Shown: positions 18,513 through 29,841 of the stretch, in pieces
Layout: each line of letters opens with the position of its first letter
Numbering within the stretch: the first letter of the stretch is position 1
Virus record (IMG/VR): IMGVR_UViG_3300045806_000118
Coordinates: 1-37,418 of that record
Length of the DNA stretch: 37,418 nucleotides
Reading direction: 5' to 3' (one strand)
Source of the DNA: a virus
Position numbers and translations under genes: made by a program
Notes under the pieces: generated by a model
What the model was told of the DNA's origin: nothing
The model's database searches: none
What the model saw: only the letters and a program-made list of their open reading frames with translations

Positions 18513-19489
18513 AGCGAGGCGTACTCCCCATCAAACGTGAACGGATCGTCAGGAACATTTGGGAATCCCCCTGACATTTCGGCCAAAAGTTCAGCATTGC
18601 TTTTAGCGAGGCGGTTATTGCCGCGCGTTGGCCGGTAACTCCCCTCCATCAATTTGGTAAAAATTGATTGTCGGGTGATGAAATCAAAATCGGCAGTCCA
18701 ACCATCACGGCTTGTGATGCCGCGAAGGAAATCGCTAGCCCGAATTTGGTCCATCGCAGATTTCCAGCCATCCATGCCGCCGCAGTCACGCAAACGGGCC
18801 AGCAGAAGGCGCCTGCGACTATCAGAGAGTTTTGCTACCTGGGGTAGTCCGCAGGATACCGCCATAGCATTCCAGCAGGATACCGCCTCCTGACAGTCAT
18901 CGTTCACTTTCAACCTCGTGATTGAGGCCGTTGGTAGCAGATCAAGGCACCCGTCACCGCTAGGTGACACGAGAGCCGAAGGCTCCCTTATGTTTTTCTT
19001 ATCTGGTTCTGGTTCTGGTTCTCCCCCTATCAACAGATCGACATCTCTTTGATTTGCTGAATGGGTATCGTGTTTTTTCAATGTCTTAGCAGGTTTCGTC
19101 TCTGTGGACGAAATTGCGTTCGTCTGGGGCTGTTTGCAGGGAGACGCCATAGCCTTTGCAGACCGTGCAGCACGGGCAATTTCAGCCGCCGCAGCGCGTT
19201 TCTCACTGACCTCATTACGATGGGCAATCTCTGCATCCATGCGCTTTTGGTGCCACCGTCCATCTGCCAATAGCGTGAAAAATGGCATCACTTGCTTGCG
19301 AATATCGCGTCGCCAAATTTCAAGAGGACATGATGCCAATCGCGCGAGCATCACATCATCATCGGGCAATGTCCCAGAACGCCAGCACGACATAAGCAAA
19401 AGCAGGTATGCTCCGTGCCCCCGATAATCGAGGTGGCGTGTGTCAGAGAGGTAGTCACCCACGTAGAGTGGCATCCACTGATAGCTCAT
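18509..19489 (-). CDS. DUF1376 (YdaU-type) replication-associated protein (326 aa)
   Basis: The N-terminus is a canonical DUF1376 domain: MSYQWMPLYVGDYLSDTRHL, then YRGHGAYLLLLMSCWRSGTL PDDDVMLARLASCPLEIW. A charged linker follows, including a short GEPEPEPDKK run from a GGTTCT microrepeat. The C-terminal half (LSDSRRRLLLARLRDCGGMD; FLRGITSRDGWTADFDFITR) is like the DnaT/helicase-loader-type end of many phage replication proteins. DUF1376 proteins sit at the initiator position in lambdoid and other phages. ATG 19489 overlaps the previous stop as ATGA. Confidence 0.8.
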   Translation of the reverse strand: MSYQWMPLYVGDYLSDTRHLDYRGHGAYLLLLMSCWRSGTLPDDDVMLARLASCPLEIWRRDIRKQVMPFFTLLADGRWHQKRMDAEIAHRNEVSEKRAAAAEIARAARSAKAMASPCKQPQTNAISSTETKPAKTLKKHDTHSANQRDVDLLIGGEPEPEPDKKNIREPSALVSPSGDGCLDLLPTASITRLKVNDDCQEAVSCWNAMAVSCGLPQVAKLSDSRRRLLLARLRDCGGMDGWKSAMDQIRASDFLRGITSRDGWTADFDFITRQSIFTKLMEGSYRPTRGNNRLAKSNAELLAEMSGGFPNVPDDPFTFDGEYASL

Positions 19490-20016
19490 GACCGTTTCCA
19501 ATCAGGCAATAGTCGGGCACCTTTGGCCCGGTTGCACGTCACACAGGCCGTCGCGAGGTTAGATAGACGGTAAGACCCGCCCCGCTGCAGCGGGACTATG
19601 TGATCGCACTCCAGCGGCGAATTTCGGTCGCCACAATAAACGCATGCATATCCATCCCTTCGAAAAACGAATGTCCGCAGGTTGTCCCAATTAGAAGGAG
19701 GAGCAGGGCGATGATATTGCATCTCGGGTGGATCATCAGGTATCTGCACTAAATTTCGGGCAAACCACAAACTATCAGCAATATAGAACAAAGTTTCAAG
19801 TTTTGCCCGAAACAGAATGCGAAATGCGTCTGATGTAATACCACAACATTTTCCAAGAACGGCATCATCATCAGGCATCCCGCGACGTTGATTCCCAGCT
19901 AATAGAAGGCAGATATACGCGCCTTTTTCTTCAAGCGATAAATTTGACACCGCAAACGTAAAGTCAGGAATATCTATCCTAACCTCTAGCGCTGATGAAA
20001 ATAGCGTCGTGCTCAT
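19486..20016 (-). CDS. DUF1376-like domain fused to an HNH endonuclease (176 aa)
   Basis: Residues 15-95 resemble a DUF1376 fold (IPDFTFAVSNLSLEEKGAYI CLLLAGNQRRGMPDDDAVLG). Residues 108-170 are a complete HNH module: FVFRRDGYACVYCGDRN (C125, C128), LECDHIVPLQRGGS (D138, H139), LSNLATACVTCNRAKGARLL (N153, C158, C161, N162). It lies directly upstream of a full DUF1376 gene and overlaps it by ATGA (19489-19486). The pairing suggests a duplicated DUF1376 domain that gained a nuclease, or a small HNH gene that captured an upstream domain. Role unknown, possibly DNA nicking in replication. Confidence 0.75.
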   Translation of the reverse strand: MSTTLFSSALEVRIDIPDFTFAVSNLSLEEKGAYICLLLAGNQRRGMPDDDAVLGKCCGITSDAFRILFRAKLETLFYIADSLWFARNLVQIPDDPPEMQYHRPAPPSNWDNLRTFVFRRDGYACVYCGDRNSPLECDHIVPLQRGGSYRLSNLATACVTCNRAKGARLLPDWKRS

Positions 20017-20369
20017 TGGAATCCTTTCCAACGCCCGGCGGCCACGCTGAGCGCCCATAATAGTGCGCAGCAGGGCAGGGGCTCAAAGTTTTGGGACGCC
20101 CACCACGCGCGTTCATCACCGCGCATGTGGAGGGCAGAGTGATGGATGACGCACAGCGGCAGCACCCAGCAGTCAGAGGCTTTCAGGCCGCGCGCCTTGG
20201 GCTCAGGGCCGCATGTCAGGTGGTGAGCTTGGGCATCACGGTTTGGGCATCCGGCGATGGCGCAGGGCAGGGAGGCCACCCAGCGCAAATGCTGTTCCGA
20301 CCGAATGCGGCCCGGCTTCTTGTCCTGGCGCCGTGAGCGGGTTTTGGAGAGCAGCAAGCCGTCGCTCAT
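20013..20369 (-). CDS. DUF968/Ref-like HNH recombination nuclease (118 aa)
   Basis: 118 residues. The diagnostic core is LRWVASLPCAIAGCPNRDAQ AHHLTCGPEPKARGLKASDC WVLPLCVIHHSALH: two Cys, an AHH motif, and a C-x2-HH motif. This is the layout of DUF968-type phage proteins, related to P1 Ref and treated as HNH nucleases in recombination. Basic N-terminus (KTRSRRQDKKPGRIRSEQ). Overlaps both neighbours by ATGA. Confidence 0.72.
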   Translation of the reverse strand: MSDGLLLSKTRSRRQDKKPGRIRSEQHLRWVASLPCAIAGCPNRDAQAHHLTCGPEPKARGLKASDCWVLPLCVIHHSALHMRGDERAWWASQNFEPLPCCALLWALSVAAGRWKGFQ

Positions 20370-22443: not shown

Positions 22444-23139
22444 ATGGCAAAAACTAGCAAGGCTAACGTGGAGATATTTGTCACTGATCCAATACGGAAA
22501 ATGATCATCGCAGAAGCGCGAAATAAAGGATTCACGTTCAAAAATATGAGTGATGCCATTGGTCGAAATGAATCATATGTGCAGCAATTTTTGTTTCGTG
22601 GCTCTCCGCGCAAACTCGCGCCAAACGACCTTGAAAACATTGCAAAAATGTTGGATTTACCCAAAGATCTTGTGCAAGCCAACTCTGATAAATCATTGGA
22701 AATTAATAGGGGGCTCGTATCATCGACGCATCGTGCTTATAATCGCAGATCACAGCAAACGCAGAGCGATTTAACGTCAACATTGGAAACTAGCATTCCC
22801 GTTTTCTCAGATGATAGCGATATAGATTTGACGCAGACCAAAGAATACATAGATCGACCTGATTGCACCAAATTATCAGCTTCTGCTTTTGCTTTGTGGG
22901 TGACGCAGTCTCAGCATCCCAGGCTCCGGTGCGGTGATCTGCTCTATGTCGGCACGCGACCTCCCGCACGCCCTGGAGATATGGTTGTCGTGCTGGATGG
23001 TGCAAAAATCCACGGAATCGGCGAGATGATTTCATCAATGGGGGATGCGGTGGAAATTGAACTCCAGCCCGACCGGCGGATTACCGCATCACGCACAACG
23101 ATGAAAATCCTAAAGGTGGCATCGGTGAAATTGGCCTAA
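22444..23139 (+). CDS. CI-like phage repressor with S24/LexA-type C-terminal domain (231 aa)
   Basis: The N-terminal DNA-binding part is near residues 30-78 (FTFKNMSDAIGRNESYVQQF, then LENIAKMLDLPKDLV). After a polar linker (80-140) comes an S24 fold: ALWVTQSQHPRLRCGDLLYV (Ser156 at the catalytic position), then ARPGDMVVVLDGAKIHGIGE. In LexA the Lys lies about 14 residues after the GD of the second strand; here that place is G191/I192, with K188 four residues earlier. The linker shows no Ala-Gly or Cys-Gly cleavage site. The fold is probably kept for dimerisation while self-cleavage may be lost. It reads rightward, away from the Cro-like gene. Confidence 0.82.
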   Translation: MAKTSKANVEIFVTDPIRKMIIAEARNKGFTFKNMSDAIGRNESYVQQFLFRGSPRKLAPNDLENIAKMLDLPKDLVQANSDKSLEINRGLVSSTHRAYNRRSQQTQSDLTSTLETSIPVFSDDSDIDLTQTKEYIDRPDCTKLSASAFALWVTQSQHPRLRCGDLLYVGTRPPARPGDMVVVLDGAKIHGIGEMISSMGDAVEIELQPDRRITASRTTMKILKVASVKLA

Positions 23140-23206
23140 TCCTATTTATGCGATCTAGGAAATTAGGATTGCAATTCAAAATCTGATTTCCTATTGTCCT
23201 CCTATC
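23137..23206. promoter_or_regulatory. Second operator cluster, upstream of the recombination module
   Basis: AATCCTATT (23138-23146), CTAGGAAAT (23155-23163, reverse), TTAGGATTG (23163-23171, reverse), TTTCCTATT (23187-23195) and CTCCTATCG (23199-23207) lie in the 96-base gap between the repressor and the RecE-like gene. The motif is shared with 22321-22363, so the repressor or Cro-like protein probably controls this rightward promoter too. Confidence 0.55.
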
Positions 23207-23235: not shown

Positions 23236-24060
23236 ATGCATTTTCACGAAATTCAACCCCAGCGTACACCGGGAATTTACAGCGGAATTCCCGAAGAAAA
23301 ATATCATGGCGGCCCTGAAATCTCGATTTCCGGTCTGAAAATGTTCGCTGAACCCGGTGGCCCGGCGCGCTACCGATACGGCAAGCGCGATGAGACGCGC
23401 GCGCTCAGGCTGGGCTCATTGTTGCACTGCGCGCTGCTCGAACCCAACGATCTGGACAAGCGTTATTGCGTTGTGAATTTGGAGCGCTTTGACCCTCGTT
23501 CATCCGCCTACAAGGATGCTGAGGCGGCAGCGCTCGGACGCGAGTTGGTCAAGCGGGCCGACTACGACAATGCCAAACGGTTTGCCGATCAGGTGCTGAA
23601 AACCCCGCTGATTGCGGAGTTGTTCAGCAAAAATCTTGAGGTGGAAAATTCGGTCTATTGGACCGACCCAGTCACCGGCCTCGCCTGTCGTGGCAGAGTT
23701 GATGCCATGCGCCGAGATCACCGCATCCTGATCGACATCAAGAGCACTGAGAGCGCCAATCCCAGCGATTTCGCCAGGACATGCGCGAATTATCGCTATC
23801 ACTGGCAGGACGCCTACTACCGTGACGGCATTCTGGAATCCGGCGCATTCAAGCCCGAGGCATTCCTGTTCATCGCAATCGAAAAAACTGAACCCTATGT
23901 CCACGGCATCTATGAGCTCGAAGAACGTGCGCTCGACCTCGCGCGGTCAGAAATTCGCCTGCATCTCGACCATTTTGCTCAGTGCAAAGAGCGTGACCAG
24001 TGGCCCGGCCTGCCGGGTGATCTGGTGACGCTCCCTCTCCCGTCCTACCTCTTTAACTGA
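23236..24060 (+). CDS. RecE-like PD-(D/E)XK exonuclease (274 aa)
   Basis: 274 residues. N-terminal signature: ISISGLKMFAEPGGPARYRY and LRLGSLLHCALLEPNDLDKR (H64). Nuclease core: GLACRGRVDAMRRDHRILID IKST (D156, D167, K169), then YRYHWQDAYYRDG (Q191 and Tyr) as in the RecB/RecE motif. This is the C-terminal exonuclease domain of RecE (DUF3799 type) without the long N-terminal part of E. coli RecE. It should resect double-stranded ends 5'-3' and feed the annealase encoded next. GGAGCAACCGT before ATG 23236 is a good ribosome-binding site and decides the start. Confidence 0.85.
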   Translation: MHFHEIQPQRTPGIYSGIPEEKYHGGPEISISGLKMFAEPGGPARYRYGKRDETRALRLGSLLHCALLEPNDLDKRYCVVNLERFDPRSSAYKDAEAAALGRELVKRADYDNAKRFADQVLKTPLIAELFSKNLEVENSVYWTDPVTGLACRGRVDAMRRDHRILIDIKSTESANPSDFARTCANYRYHWQDAYYRDGILESGAFKPEAFLFIAIEKTEPYVHGIYELEERALDLARSEIRLHLDHFAQCKERDQWPGLPGDLVTLPLPSYLFN

Positions 24061-24071
24061 AAGCCCCATAC

Positions 24072-25061
24072 ATGAGTGAAATCCAATCGGCCGAGCAAAG
24101 CTCTGCCAACAGCTTCTTGAATGGCCACCGTGCGGCCAGCAACCCGCAGCCCAGCCCAGCCCTGACACGCCGAAACGGCATTTCATCTGCCGTTGCCCCC
24201 GAGGCGAACATGCCACAAATCGGCGTCGGGTTCGGCAACGTGCGATCGTTCGAATTCACGATGCGCGTGGCGCGTGCGCTGAGCTCATCCACGATGGTGC
24301 CGACCGCCTATCGCCAGCAGATTCCCGGCAAGGGCAAGGACCGCCACGCGCTGGTCGACAATCCCAATGGTTTGCCGAACTGTATGGTTGCAATCAACAT
24401 GGCCGACCGGCTCAAAGCCGATCCATTGATGGTGATGCAGAACCTCTACGTCATTGAGGGACGACCCAGCTGGAGCGCGCAATTCGTGATCGCGCTGGCG
24501 AACAACTCCAGCCTGTTTAAGACGCCAATTCAATTCGACGTGTCCGATCACGGCGAAATCGAATGCCAATATGAAGAAAGCGCTTGGGTTGATGGCGCAT
24601 CGGTGACGCGCATCCATAAGGTGACGGTGCGCGATCTGCGCTGCGTTGCATGGGCTCTCGACCAGCAGGGCAACCGCGTCGAATCCGACACGGTGACGAT
24701 GCGCATGGCGGTCGAGGAGGGCTGGTATGGCAAGAAAGGGTCGAAGTGGAAGACGATGCCGGGCCAAATGATCCGGTATCGCGCGGCGTCGTTTTTCTGC
24801 CGCATTCACAGCCCGCATTTGATGATGGGCCTGCCGACCAGCGACGAAGTGTATGACACGCTCGAGGCCGAGCAGACCACAGACGGGACGTGGGAAACTG
24901 CTAGCGAGGTAAAGGCCGATATCGAAGTGCAGCAGGAATCTCAGCCGACCGAGGAAGCCACTATTGAGGCTGAGGTTGAACAGCAGCAGGAAAAATCCGA
25001 GCCTGATAGCGAAATAACCGCAGTGAAGCCATCCGATGACGGCTTTGGCGACATGGACTAG
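24072..25061 (+). CDS. recT: RecT-family single-strand annealing protein (329 aa)
   Basis: The central region matches RecT: NPNGLPNCMVAINMADRLKA DPLMVMQNLYVIEGRPSWSA QFVIALANNS, then EGWYGKKGSKWKTMPGQMIR YRAASFFCRIHSPHLMMGLP. The first 60 residues and the acidic Glu/Gln-rich last 70 are low complexity, probably flexible. RecT anneals complementary strands after resection. It follows the RecE-like gene by 11 bases, the standard pairing. Confidence 0.87.
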   Translation: MSEIQSAEQSSANSFLNGHRAASNPQPSPALTRRNGISSAVAPEANMPQIGVGFGNVRSFEFTMRVARALSSSTMVPTAYRQQIPGKGKDRHALVDNPNGLPNCMVAINMADRLKADPLMVMQNLYVIEGRPSWSAQFVIALANNSSLFKTPIQFDVSDHGEIECQYEESAWVDGASVTRIHKVTVRDLRCVAWALDQQGNRVESDTVTMRMAVEEGWYGKKGSKWKTMPGQMIRYRAASFFCRIHSPHLMMGLPTSDEVYDTLEAEQTTDGTWETASEVKADIEVQQESQPTEEATIEAEVEQQQEKSEPDSEITAVKPSDDGFGDMD

Positions 25062-25133
25062 CGCGCGACCTAGCTAGCTCGCCACCAACCACCATAGCGA
25101 GGCTCCGCCCTCGCATCATGAAAGTCCCGCCGT

Positions 25134-26885
25134 ATGAAAATCACCTCTTTGACCTGCGTGAACTGGCTTTGCCACCGCGATGTCAGTTTCAAATTCCAAC
25201 CGATGACGATCCTCGCCGGCCCGAACGGAAGCGGCAAATCCGCAGCACTGGATGGGATCGCGTTCGCGCTGCAAAGCCAAATCGCCCGCGTGGCCACCAA
25301 AGGCGAGCGTGACCAACTGATCACCGATGGTGCCGATACGGGCAACGTGCGGATTGACACGGACTGGGGATTCATCGACCGCGACATCCAGGGCCGGAAA
25401 GGGATCACGAAAGTCAGCATTGCCGTGCCGGAAGGTATTGAGACAGCGGCAATGCCCTATCTGCTGAACGCCAAGATGTTTGCCAATCATTTTCCAGCAG
25501 AACGGCTTGATGGATTCTTGCGGTTTATGGCGGTGACAAAAACTGGCAACCAATTGCGCACCATTTTGGATGGTCGCAAGCACCCGAAAGAACTGCTCGA
25601 CCGGCTGAAACCATTCGAGAGCATCAGCCAGTGGTGTGTCGAGGCGCAGGCATTTGCGGCTGAGGAGCGCGGCGCTTGGAAAGCGCTCACCGGCGGTGCA
25701 TATGGCGCGAAAAAGGCAGAGACTTGGACTGCACCAGTCGCTGGCGTGGCTGATCAGGCGCAAATAGAAGATGCTGAGAAAAATGTTGCCCGCCTCAAAG
25801 CCCTGATTGCAGCCGAGCAGGAAAAGCTGGGTGCAGCAAAGGCGCATGAGGCGACGAGCGGCCAGCGTGCCAGCCTTGAGAGCAAAGCAAAAATGCTCGA
25901 AGTCGCCACAACCTTTCTCAGCGACAAGCGGGCTGAACTTGCGGCGGCAGATGCTGCTCTCACCACGGCGCTTGCACATGAGGCCGACGTTCGCAATCGG
26001 TTGAGCGATGCGGTGCCGATGGATTGCCCGCATTGCCACACCATGCTGGTCTTGAAGCGGGATTTGGCCGGGCACGAACTGGCCATTCATATGCCGGTGG
26101 AGAATGCAGCAACGAATGCTGACATCCATGCCGCTCACCGAGCAGCCGAAACAGCCCGGGAGGCCCATGCATCTGCGAAGGCGGCTGTTTTGACTGCTCA
26201 GGCCGAGGTAGATGCTGCCCAGGCCGCATCTGCAGCCCTCGCTGCCATGTCGCCAATGACTGATGGCGGCAACCCGGTGCCGATCCGCGACATTGAGATC
26301 CAGATTGGGATCTACTTGCACGATCTGGAATCGTCGGAGGCATGGCTGACTGATATGCAGGCCATCAAGCGGTCCAATGACGAGGCCGAGGACCGCACTG
26401 CGCGTGCGCTCAAAGCCCATCAAGGCGTGATGGCTGCAATCGCCCTGGCAACCGATCTGGCCCCGGATGGGTTGCAAAAGACATGGTGTGCCGAAGCCCT
26501 GGCCAAGATCAACAAGACGCTGCGCGACATGGCCACCGCCACCGGCTGGCGTCAGGTCCATATCGGCCCGAGCATGGAGATCACCAGCGAAAACCGCCCC
26601 TATGCGCTGCACAGCGAGAGCGAAAAATGGCGCACCAATGCGATGATTGCCAGCGCAATTGCCATCCACACCGGCCTGCGTTTCGTCCTGCTCGACGAAT
26701 TCGACATCCTGCAGCCGAGCGCGCGCAAGGGTGCGATGGGCTGGTGCCGGTCGCTGGTGTCTGGCGAGGCACCACAGCTGGACAGCGTCATCATCGCCGG
26801 GACATTCAAAGAAGCACCGCAAGTGCCGAAAGACATCGGCATGCATTGGCTGGGTGAACCCGCCGCCGAACGCGCGGCCGCTTGA
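25134..26885 (+). CDS. Rad50/SbcC-like ATPase with zinc-hook motif (583 aa)
   Basis: Starts MKITSLTCVNWLCHRDVSFK with Walker A GPNGSGKS at 29-36. Coiled-coil arms (about 205-290 and 325-440) flank a CPHC zinc hook at 298-301. The signature-like helix LHSESEKWRTNAMIASAIA (492-510) and Walker B RFVLLDEFDI (D521, E522) complete the ABC head. It is much shorter than SbcC (about 1000 aa), so the arms are short. No SbcD/Mre11 nuclease is seen; the RecE-like protein could be its nuclease partner. Its stop shares one base with the helicase start (TGATG). The gap before it (25062-25133) holds CTAG palindromes. Confidence 0.85.
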   Translation: MKITSLTCVNWLCHRDVSFKFQPMTILAGPNGSGKSAALDGIAFALQSQIARVATKGERDQLITDGADTGNVRIDTDWGFIDRDIQGRKGITKVSIAVPEGIETAAMPYLLNAKMFANHFPAERLDGFLRFMAVTKTGNQLRTILDGRKHPKELLDRLKPFESISQWCVEAQAFAAEERGAWKALTGGAYGAKKAETWTAPVAGVADQAQIEDAEKNVARLKALIAAEQEKLGAAKAHEATSGQRASLESKAKMLEVATTFLSDKRAELAAADAALTTALAHEADVRNRLSDAVPMDCPHCHTMLVLKRDLAGHELAIHMPVENAATNADIHAAHRAAETAREAHASAKAAVLTAQAEVDAAQAASAALAAMSPMTDGGNPVPIRDIEIQIGIYLHDLESSEAWLTDMQAIKRSNDEAEDRTARALKAHQGVMAAIALATDLAPDGLQKTWCAEALAKINKTLRDMATATGWRQVHIGPSMEITSENRPYALHSESEKWRTNAMIASAIAIHTGLRFVLLDEFDILQPSARKGAMGWCRSLVSGEAPQLDSVIIAGTFKEAPQVPKDIGMHWLGEPAAERAAA

Positions 26886-28204
26886 TGAAGATGGTTCTCA
26901 CCGATGGGCAGGCACAAGCCCATCGGGAAATCATGCATGCCTATGAGCCGGGAAAATGGCATTTGCTCCTTGGCTCAGCCGGCACTGGGAAGACCACGCT
27001 GCTGCAGGAGACCATGCGATCTATGCAGCAGCGCGGCCTCACCGTGGCAGCATCCGCACCCACGCATAAAGCCGTGAAGGTTATTGAGCGGAAAATGCGC
27101 GAGGCTGGCTTGGAGATGCCGGTCTCAACCTGCCACAAGCTCCTTTCACTTGAGCCCAACAAGACACAGCCGGGCGAGGGGTTGCAGTTCCGCCGCCGGC
27201 GCGGCGCAACACCCGTCGACGTAGACGTAGTGGCAATCGACGAAGCCTCGATGCTGGGTGCCGATGTGATGCGCCACGCTCGCTCACAGCTCGCCAACAA
27301 ATTTGTGCTGCTGATCGGAGACCAGGCGCAATTGCCGCCGGTCAACGAAGAGGAGAGTCAGGCATTCCAAATCAGAGGGCGCAGCGAACTCACCGAGATC
27401 ATGCGCCAAGCTGCTGACAATCCCATCATCAAGGCCGCTACCATCGTCCGCCACTCACAAGGCGGGGCCGTAGATTGGACATGGTGCCGTGAAAACCGAT
27501 CCGACCGCGCCGGGGTGTTTGTGCCAGAAGCGCACCGCGTTGACGCATGGCTTAAAAAAGCCTTCACGCATCCTGAATTTGAGGCTGACCCCGATAGTTT
27601 TCGCTACCTCGCTTGGACCAATCGCAAGGTGGCCAGCATCAATGCCAAGGTTCGGCGCTGGCGCTACGGCATGGCGGCCGATGAAGCGCCGTTCGTCATC
27701 GGCGAGAAGGCGCTGGTGCGCGCACCGATCATCCATGATGATGCGATCGTCGCACAGACGGGCGAAGAAATTGCTGTGCTCGCGATTGAGCAGGCAAACT
27801 TCTATCACGCGCTGAAAGACCACGGACCATGCCCGTCCTGGCTCGCCGAGGTACCAAGCTGGTTGATCACCGGCAAACGCGACAACGGCGAAATCATCAG
27901 AATCCATATGATCCGCAACCGCTCGGCCTATGAGGCCGCACGCAATCGGATCTTGGCCGAGGCCATTGATGATCGCGACAGATGGGGCGAGCGGCGTGAT
28001 TTTGATAGCGCCTTGGCTGACCTCCAGCCGATCTATGCCATGACGGTGCATGCCAGTCAGGGCTCGACATTTGGCACGGTGTTTGTGGATGTGCGCGACA
28101 TCAAAGGCAGGATGGACGACAATTTGCTCGAGATGCAGCAACTGCTCTATGTCGCGCTCACGCGCCCCAGCACGGGCGCGGTGCTGATCGGGGCGCCTAC
28201 CTGA
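26885..28204 (+). CDS. RecD/Dda-like SF1 helicase (439 aa)
   Basis: SF1B helicase motifs in order: Walker A LLLGSAGTGKTTLL (30-37), motif Ia ASAPTHKAVKV, motif II DVVAIDEASMLGA (119-122), motif III GDQAQLPPVN, motif IV near FRYLAWTNRKVASINA, motif V MTVHASQGSTFGTVFVD and motif VI LLYVALTRP. Size and the THKA and ALTR motifs fit phage Dda/RecD2-type helicases. Role: 5'-3' unwinding in phage replication or recombination. ATG 26885 is used; a TTG one codon earlier is less likely. The last 58 bases are overlapped on the opposite strand by an HNH gene. Confidence 0.9.
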   Translation: MKMVLTDGQAQAHREIMHAYEPGKWHLLLGSAGTGKTTLLQETMRSMQQRGLTVAASAPTHKAVKVIERKMREAGLEMPVSTCHKLLSLEPNKTQPGEGLQFRRRRGATPVDVDVVAIDEASMLGADVMRHARSQLANKFVLLIGDQAQLPPVNEEESQAFQIRGRSELTEIMRQAADNPIIKAATIVRHSQGGAVDWTWCRENRSDRAGVFVPEAHRVDAWLKKAFTHPEFEADPDSFRYLAWTNRKVASINAKVRRWRYGMAADEAPFVIGEKALVRAPIIHDDAIVAQTGEEIAVLAIEQANFYHALKDHGPCPSWLAEVPSWLITGKRDNGEIIRIHMIRNRSAYEAARNRILAEAIDDRDRWGERRDFDSALADLQPIYAMTVHASQGSTFGTVFVDVRDIKGRMDDNLLEMQQLLYVALTRPSTGAVLIGAPT

Positions 28205-28608
28205 AACAGATCACCGGTGGCCATCTGTGCCCGCCGGGTGGCGTGAGCATTGCGCCGATGGTGCAGGGCGTCGTGGCGCAGGTGGCAGCGCTGGCACCAT
28301 GCCCGTAGATTGGAGCGCTGATTGTGCTCTGGATGATGATCGACATGGCCGACCGTTAGGATGATGCGGATAATTCGATGCACAATTCCGTCAGGCCCGA
28401 CATGCACAAGAGGATTTTGGATTTCTCCATTTTTGGAAATGGCGGGCGGCGCGACGGCATGAAATGCACCAGATGCATCGCGCCATCCCCAAGCACAATG
28501 ACGAACCCCACAAGCCTCACAACACCATCGCGCATCAACCTTGACCGCATGGCTGATTGCAGGCCAATTATGCGGATACCGATGGCGCTCGCTCGGTCGG
28601 ATTGGCAT
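28147..28608 (-). CDS. HNH-like nuclease, antisense to the helicase 3' end (153 aa)
   Basis: 153 residues starting MPIRPSERHRYPHNWPAISH. Zinc/HNH features: ARWCCEACGVRH (CxxC), then ILTVGHVDHHPEHNQRSNLR AWCQRCHLRHDALHH, that is a His-rich catalytic segment, an N-L-R and a CxxCH. This is the HNH pattern of small phage nucleases with DHxPxNN-like cores. ATG 28608 has AAGGGG upstream; the longer frame would need a TTG. The 3' end overlaps the helicase gene tail-to-tail by 58 bases. Confidence 0.7.
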   Translation of the reverse strand: MPIRPSERHRYPHNWPAISHAVKVDARWCCEACGVRHCAWGWRDASGAFHAVAPPAISKNGEIQNPLVHVGPDGIVHRIIRIILTVGHVDHHPEHNQRSNLRAWCQRCHLRHDALHHRRNAHATRRAQMATGDLFQVGAPISTAPVLGRVSAT

Positions 28609-28684
28609 ACTCAAAGCCCCTTGAGATTGTTCCAATTTACATAAGATATATTATACGATAATCTTATTCAACGAAAAACCCCTA

Positions 28685-29178: not shown

Positions 29179-29841
29179 ATGCCTAATCCGATAATCGTCG
29201 TCGGGAACGAGAAAGGTGGGTGTGGAAAGACCACTATATCGGTGCATTTGGCTGTGGCCGCCGCGCGCGATGGCTTTGATGTGCTCCTCGTCGATGGCGA
29301 TCCAGGCCAACAATCGACGGCTCGATGGGCTGCGATGCGCGCTCAAATGCACCCCGATGCGCCGGCAATCAAATGCGTGACCGTCACCGGCCGCGACATC
29401 CGCGCCCAGATGCGCGACCTCGCCGGGCGCTACCAGCTCGTCATCTTGGATACCGGCGCTGAGGATAGCCAAGAGCTGCGTGCGGCCATCTCGATCGCAA
29501 CCGTGCTGGTGGTGCCCGTGCAACCCGAGAGCTTGGATCTGTGGACGCTGCCCACGATGGAGCGGCTATTCACCAACACCCAATCGTTCAATCCACAGCT
29601 TAAAGCCGTGATCGCCATCAACCGCGCACCATACCAGACCGTCGACAGTGTGGCGGGTGACGTGCGCGGCTTCATGGCGGCCAATGTGCCGGGGTTGCCG
29701 ACCGCCAGCATGGCTACGCTGACAGGCCGCACAGCCTATGGCCGGGCCATCTCGGAAGGGTTGAGCGTGGTCGAAATGTCGAAGAGAGACATCCGCGCCT
29801 GCAATGAAATCGAACGTCTATGGAAGGAAGTCAGCGAATGA
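29179..29841 (+). CDS. parA: ParA-type partition ATPase (220 aa)
   Basis: Deviant Walker A NEKGGCGKTT (K12, K17), motif 2 VLLVDGDPGQQSTARWAA, Walker B YQLVILDTGAEDS, and VVVPVQPESLDLW. The length of 220 residues without an N-terminal HTH fits the small (type Ib) plasmid ParA group, whose partner is a small RHH protein, as found here directly downstream. ParA would move plasmid copies along the nucleoid. The D-T-G-A in Walker B is slightly unusual (D-T-P/A more common). Confidence 0.88.
   Translation: MPNPIIVVGNEKGGCGKTTISVHLAVAAARDGFDVLLVDGDPGQQSTARWAAMRAQMHPDAPAIKCVTVTGRDIRAQMRDLAGRYQLVILDTGAEDSQELRAAISIATVLVVPVQPESLDLWTLPTMERLFTNTQSFNPQLKAVIAINRAPYQTVDSVAGDVRGFMAANVPGLPTASMATLTGRTAYGRAISEGLSVVEMSKRDIRACNEIERLWKEVSE

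What the first reader, a model, noticed from the sequence alone, without database searches (positions are those of the whole stretch)
23236..28204. Four-gene recombination module: RecE-like, RecT, short Rad50-like ATPase, RecD/Dda-like helicase
RecE/RecT pairs are common; here they are followed directly by a 583-residue Rad50/SbcC-like ATPase with a CPHC zinc hook but no SbcD/Mre11, then an SF1B helicase coupled by TGATG. The ATPase may work with the RecE-like nuclease instead of Mre11, making a compact end-processing machine. It might also help the plasmid form avoid host nucleases such as RecBCD/AddAB.
Basis: partly seen in the sequence, partly recalled or inferred. Interest (0 to 1): 0.6.

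Follow-up and report, generated by a model that had tools for sequence, protein, structure and literature searches.

The report
Mre11-less Rad50-like ATPase beside RecE–RecT
A phage carries a RecE–RecT DNA-recombination pair with a short Rad50-like ATPase directly behind it; relatives of that ATPase sit behind an exonuclease–annealing pair in over a hundred other phages and never with Rad50's usual nuclease partner Mre11, so it looks like an independent DNA-end-handling accessory rather than half of a nuclease.

Summary
The four genes are real, intact and in one + strand array: RecE-family exonuclease, RecT, a 583-aa Rad50-like ATPase with a CPHC hook, and a Dda-like SF1B helicase overlapping it by TGATG. 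The survey supports part of the interpretation. No Mre11/SbcD domain occurs in the window or in 76 phage records carrying this ATPase family (T4 gp47 control detected). Where a locus holds at least 4 kb upstream, 145 of 153 show nuclease–annealing protein–ATPase, always in that order. Anchored on RecT instead, 66 of 79 loci have the ATPase downstream (11 of the other 13 end within 3 kb). But the nuclease is not constant: RecE occurs with it only twice (window, L120), otherwise a Cas4-like PDDEXK_1 or a YqaJ nuclease, and ATPases 99.5% identical sit beside unrelated nucleases whose genes were swapped with RecT as a cassette. That argues against a dedicated ATPase–RecE complex. The helicase is not part of the module. 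New: 139 of 149 aligned relatives have Arg where the Walker-B catalytic Glu belongs; the window is one of three keeping Glu. Most likely an ATP-gated end-binding/tethering accessory of exonuclease–annealing modules. Nothing tests the RecBCD-evasion idea. The record is a fragment.

The parts
23236..24060 (+). RecE-family (DUF3799, PD-(D/E)XK) exonuclease, 274 aa
   Evidence: PDB 3h4r E 5e-25 with the H, E, D, D-x-K positions retained in the printed alignment
24072..25061 (+). RecT-family single-strand annealing protein, 329 aa
   Evidence: PF03837 2.5e-5 (just over cut-off), phrog_561 1.8e-71
25134..26885 (+). short Rad50-like ABC ATPase, 583 aa, CPHC hook at residues 298-301, Walker-B Glu retained (LLDEFD)
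   Evidence: AlphaFold model; closest solved folds Rad50 (Z 21.5) and Lamassu LmuB
26885..28204 (+). Dda-like SF1B DNA helicase, 439 aa, start overlapping the ATPase stop (TGATG)
   Evidence: PF13604, PF13538, phrog_325 1.1e-83, PDB 9kwf 6e-40, Dda 3upu 1e-14
23138..23193 (.). inverted repeats in the leader before the RecE gene; possible operator of the upstream repressor-like gene (inferred)
   Evidence: arms 23156-23166/23183-23193 and 23138-23147/23161-23170
22444..23139 (+). possible phage repressor directly upstream (weak S24 match)
   Evidence: Peptidase_S24 E 0.097, below cut-off

Best explanation
The ATPase is a stand-alone, Mre11-less Rad50-like protein that serves a phage exonuclease-annealing (RecE-RecT type) recombination module. 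Shown: the gene order, the absence of an Mre11 domain in the records searched, the hook and ATP-binding motifs, and indifference to which nuclease family is next door. Inferred: two molecules engage heads on ATP around a DNA end or duplex, pair or tether through the hook (or another apex contact in relatives without CxxC), and so hold ends near the exonuclease and annealing protein for resection, strand annealing and concatemer formation or circularisation. Most relatives have Arg in place of the Walker-B Glu and are predicted to hydrolyse ATP slowly or not at all, so there it would be a binding switch rather than a motor; the window copy keeps Glu and could turn over. The helicase coupled behind it is a phage-specific addition that probably exposes single strands for RecT or restarts forks.
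For: 145 of 153 loci with at least 4 kb upstream: nuclease then annealing protein then ATPase, always in that order. Independent anchor on RecT: ATPase downstream in 66 of 79 loci; 11 of the remaining 13 end within 3 kb, 2 lack it. No PF00149 in 76 ATPase-carrying records; T4 gp47 rings at 1.9e-9. Nuclease class changes at least 10 times on the ATPase tree, no more clustered than shuffled labels; L084/L087 ATPases 99.5% identical with YqaJ versus PDDEXK_1, and DNA alignment shows a cassette swap of nuclease plus most of RecT. Fold: Rad50 head Z 21.5; Foldseek top hit Lamassu LmuB. Walker-B +1 residue: Arg 139, Ala 4, Glu 3, Ser, Gly, His 1 each, of 149.
Against: No biochemistry. Position in an operon does not prove joint action. 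A host SbcD could supply an Mre11. 40 of 153 unique sequences (a few of them partial) lack any CxxC, so a zinc hook cannot be essential in all. The window ATPase is divergent (at most about 33% identical to any relative found) and keeps Glu, so family behaviour may not transfer. Sampling is rich in Pseudomonas phages and only the best 80 hits per scan were kept.
Confidence: 0.5

Rival explanations
1. The ATPase forms a true complex with the neighbouring PDDEXK nuclease, replacing Mre11, as LmuB is thought to pair with a nuclease-bearing LmuA in Lamassu.
For: A PDDEXK nuclease is upstream in nearly every locus; top Foldseek hit is Lamassu LmuB in complex; the Lamassu review reports a small Rad50-like protein with a zinc hook and Walker-B Glu-to-Gln paired with effector domains that include PD-(D/E)XK (PMC10586767).
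Against: Near-identical ATPases sit beside nucleases of different families, and the window's RecE pairing is one of two, apparently acquired separately on the tree.
Confidence: 0.2
2. The ATPase is a counter-defence factor: it caps phage DNA ends or competes with or poisons host SbcCD (or shields from RecBCD), doing work like lambda Gam or TelN.
For: Most members lack the catalytic Glu, so they could be stable ATP-bound clamps on ends; no own Mre11; phages do inhibit host Mre11-Rad50 (TelN, Gam; PMC12624138).
Against: Does not explain fixed order and linkage to exonuclease-annealing genes; no sequence evidence of SbcD binding; window copy keeps Glu.
Confidence: 0.2
3. It uses the host's SbcD as nuclease partner, giving a hybrid SbcCD aimed at phage DNA.
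For: Rad50-type head fold; hosts of these phages generally encode metallophosphoesterases including SbcD (PF00149 rings in all 14 control genomes, although that domain is broader than SbcD).
Against: Coiled-coil arms are short and the family is very divergent from SbcC; nothing shows the SbcD-binding surface is kept.
Confidence: 0.06
4. Mere neighbourhood: the genes are early phage genes that travel together without joint function.
For: Phage genomes are modular, and RecE-type nuclease-RecT pairs occur without this ATPase.
Against: 145 of 145 scorable loci share one order across divergent phages, and the ATPase stays when nuclease and RecT are swapped.
Confidence: 0.04

Closest known systems
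RecE-RecT (Rac prophage) exonuclease-annealing pair
   Same: The first two genes are members: RecE nuclease domain at 5e-25, RecT family, adjacent
   Different: Short stand-alone RecE domain; Rad50-like ATPase and helicase follow
SbcCD / Mre11-Rad50 and T4 gp46-gp47
   Same: Rad50-type head, CxxC hook, short form like T4 gp46 (560 aa)
   Different: No Mre11 in 76 records; T4 gp46 keeps Walker-B Glu (LILDEVFD) whereas 146 of 149 relatives here do not; annealing cassette directly upstream
Lamassu LmuB (with LmuA, LmuC)
   Same: Top Foldseek hit; short coiled coils; hook; Walker-B Glu commonly replaced; nuclease nearby
   Different: No LmuA-type neighbour; phage recombination neighbours instead; replacement is Arg, not Gln; weak HMM match (window 1e-7, L001 2e-11)
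PHROG 1499 short ATPases (phages ZRG1, PHB04)
   Same: Short Rad50-like ATPase next to a RecE-type or other PDDEXK nuclease; Walker-B Glu also replaced (Gly)
   Different: 435-440 aa, no CxxC, different family and gene order
Dda / RecD2 SF1B helicases
   Same: Helicase core and C-terminal domains; Dda-like family
   Different: Coupled to the ATPase gene only in the window; in PHB04 it lies about 4.5 kb after the RecE gene

Membership tests
RecE-RecT system | RecE-type PD-(D/E)XK nuclease with active-site residues | tested here: met
   DUF3799, phrog_412, alignment to 3h4r
RecE-RecT system | adjacent RecT-family annealing protein | tested here: met
   11-base gap; PF03837, phrog_561
Mre11-Rad50 / SbcCD | Rad50-type ABC head with Walker A, signature, Walker B including Glu | tested here: met
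   window sequence and model; fold Z 21.5 to Rad50
Mre11-Rad50 / SbcCD | CxxC zinc hook at the coiled-coil apex | tested here: met
   C298/C301 between the two arms in the window model; CxxC in 113 of 153 relatives; zinc binding itself not tested
Mre11-Rad50 / SbcCD | Mre11/SbcD partner encoded with it | tested here: not met
   none in window or in 76 ATPase-carrying records; T4 control positive
Lamassu | LmuB-type SMC-like ATPase | tested here: inconclusive
   fold similar, PADLOC LmuB model only 1e-7 over the head
Lamassu | LmuA effector next door | tested here: not met
   RecE-like neighbour matches no PADLOC model at E 1
Dda-like SF1B helicase | AAA_30 core plus UvrD_C_2 with Dda similarity | tested here: met
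Recurrent four-gene module as proposed | helicase conserved with the other three genes | tested here: not met
   phrog_325 full-length only in window and PHB04 among 36 records; no hit in any surveyed neighbourhood

The most novel reading that the evidence does not exclude
A widespread class of phage Rad50-like proteins has left Mre11, lost its hydrolytic Glu (mostly to Arg) and become a universal, nuclease-agnostic DNA-end clamp for exonuclease-annealing recombination, under which different nuclease-annealing cassettes are exchanged.
Probability: 0.4. Interest if true: 0.75.

Novelty: new variant of a known kind. Interest (0 to 1): 0.52.

Why it matters
Rad50 is normally understood through Mre11. 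A large, natural set of Mre11-less Rad50-like proteins tied to two-gene recombination modules lets the DNA-holding role of Rad50 be studied apart from nuclease activity. Near-identical ATPases with different nucleases are a ready natural experiment, and such an accessory might improve RecT- or Red-based genome engineering.

Tried and rejected
Single-protein scans of viral contigs with the window ATPase or helicase found no close relative; an alignment-based scan did. An Mre11 hidden in the related 94-kb phage PHB04: two PF00149 hits, one at the gene annotated NinI-like phosphatase, the other a 427-aa protein with a sub-threshold match in its middle (residues 177-272), not N-terminal as in SbcD; so not taken as SbcD, though not excluded. 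Tight association of the ATPase with one nuclease family: rejected. Conserved helicase: rejected. Promoter and terminator scans gave no more than chance. Papers: Firmicutes phage recT neighbourhoods with SMC or AAA ATPases are mentioned (PMC8093625); I found no description of this Mre11-less family, but the 2002 classification of annealing proteins by Iyer and colleagues is not held, and subscription journals are missing.

Full report
Observation. The four ORFs are present, intact and on the + strand. The RecE-like gene starts best at ATG 23236 and ends at 24060; RecT follows after 11 bases (24072-25061); the ATPase after 72 bases (25134-26885); the helicase overlaps the ATPase stop as TGATG (26885-28204). 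Families: DUF3799/exonuclease VIII, with the RecE crystal structure 3h4r at 5e-25; RecT (PF03837 only just over its cut-off, phrog_561 1.8e-71); AAA_23/SbcC-like; Dda-like SF1B helicase. The record is probably a fragment: no portal, major capsid or sheath gene turned up among the larger ORFs scanned, the right end runs off near baseplate and virion genes, and TerL is 59% identical to that of the 94-kb Bordetella phage PHB04.

Anatomy of the ATPase. Walker A GPNGSGKS, signature region HSESEKWR, Walker B LLDEFD, C298-P-H-C301. The AlphaFold model (57 aligned relatives, mean pLDDT 87, pTM 0.67) is an ABC head with two helical arms (208-291 and 325-442) meeting at an apex that holds the CPHC. Closest solved folds are Rad50 heads (Z 21.5, rmsd 5.2, 299 residues aligned, 14% identity); Foldseek's first hit is Lamassu LmuB bound to DNA. 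Length is like T4 gp46 (560 aa), so shortness alone says nothing about Mre11.

Neighbourhood survey. Relatives were collected from phage genomes (neighbourhoods read), viral contigs (420 relatives, best 80 kept) and bacterial genomes. Of 153 loci with at least 4 kb upstream of the ATPase, 151 have a recognised nuclease, 146 a recognised annealing protein and 145 both; all 145 have the order nuclease, annealing protein, ATPase (some misses come from my position filter). This set pools ATPase-anchored and RecT-anchored loci. Searching with the window RecT alone gave 79 loci, 66 with the ATPase downstream; of the other 13, 11 end within 3 kb and 2 (L111, L112) lack it. RecT relatives without the ATPase do exist in sequenced phages.

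Mre11. PF00149 was searched in whole records: 37 and 44. Of these 76 carry this ATPase family (37 and 39); none has a match. T4 gp47 was detected at 1.9e-9. Most records are of unknown completeness, and the host's SbcD cannot be excluded as a partner.

Which partner is constant. The nuclease is not. PDDEXK_1 (Cas4-like) dominates, YqaJ is next (32 of 164 loci), RecE/DUF3799 occurs in the window and L120 only. On a tree of 86 ATPases the nuclease label changes at least 10 times, as scattered as shuffled labels. ATPases of L084 and L087 are 99.5% identical but have YqaJ and PDDEXK_1 nucleases; their DNA is 98% identical from the end of RecT through the ATPase and similar again upstream of the nuclease, with the nuclease and most of RecT replaced. 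Nuclease and RecT types swap together (YqaJ with one RecT type, PDDEXK_1 mostly with another), as expected of matched pairs, while the ATPase stays. Conversely 1,611 phage records hold a RecE relative, against 18 with the ATPase, and the DUF3799-type nuclease-RecT loci L111-L116 and similar show no ATPase in the DNA held.

Catalytic residue. Of 149 aligned unique relatives the residue after the Walker-B Asp is Arg in 139, Ala in 4, Glu in 3, Ser, Gly and His in 1 each. Glu occurs in the window and in the sister pair L129/L159. The Walker-B Asp, a second Asp three residues on and a later Arg are invariant in all 149. Loss of this Glu typically stops or slows hydrolysis in ABC ATPases (established knowledge); in Lamassu LmuB it is commonly Gln (PMC10586767). 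T4 gp46, which does have an Mre11 partner, keeps Glu; the PHROG 1499 short ATPases of ZRG1 and PHB04 have Gly (my reading of the motif). A CxxC is present in 113 of 153.

Helicase. Dda-like phrog_325 is found at full strength only in the window and PHB04 among 36 records. PHB04 has RecE, a PHROG 1499 ATPase, a 187-aa protein, a phrog_3657 protein and, about 4.5 kb after the RecE gene, a Dda-like helicase: a similar kit from different parts.

Conclusion. The genes and the missing Mre11 are confirmed, linkage to an exonuclease-annealing pair is strong, but RecE is not the specific partner and the helicase is an add-on. I favour a nuclease-agnostic ATP-gated end clamp (0.5); a direct nuclease partner or a counter-defence role each remain at about 0.2.

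Noticed in passing
L007:3697-4791; L191:35756-36877 (phages PY223 and PHB04): PHROG 3657 (unknown function) sits in the annealing-protein slot between a PDDEXK nuclease and the ATPase in PY223, and after RecE and the ATPase in PHB04: a candidate unrecognised annealing protein.
   Followed up: partly
L003:4831-5991 and many other loci: An RdgC domain fused to an FtsK gamma domain lies between RecT and the ATPase; 119 of 164 loci have an RdgC and/or FtsK-gamma match adjacent. The window lacks it.
   Followed up: partly
L107:2428-3735; L191:33789-35111: A second short Rad50-like family (PHROG 1499, relatives in 361 phage records) next to PDDEXK/RecE-type nucleases, without CxxC and with Gly at the Walker-B Glu position.
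   Followed up: partly
L006:8477-11056 (Burkholderia phage Magia): A diversity-generating retroelement (reverse transcriptase, Avd, lectin-fold target) lies just downstream of the ATPase gene.
   Followed up: no
window 23138-23193: Nested inverted repeats between a possible repressor gene and the RecE gene, a possible operator.
   Followed up: no
window 25065-25082: Near-palindrome GCGACCTAGCTAGCTCGC in the RecT-ATPase gap.
   Followed up: no
window 29179-29841: ParA-like partition ATPase (phrog_164), compatible with a plasmid-like prophage.
   Followed up: no
window 28147-28635 (-), 19486-20058 (-), 20013-20369 (-): Three HNH endonuclease genes near the module and replication genes.
   Followed up: no
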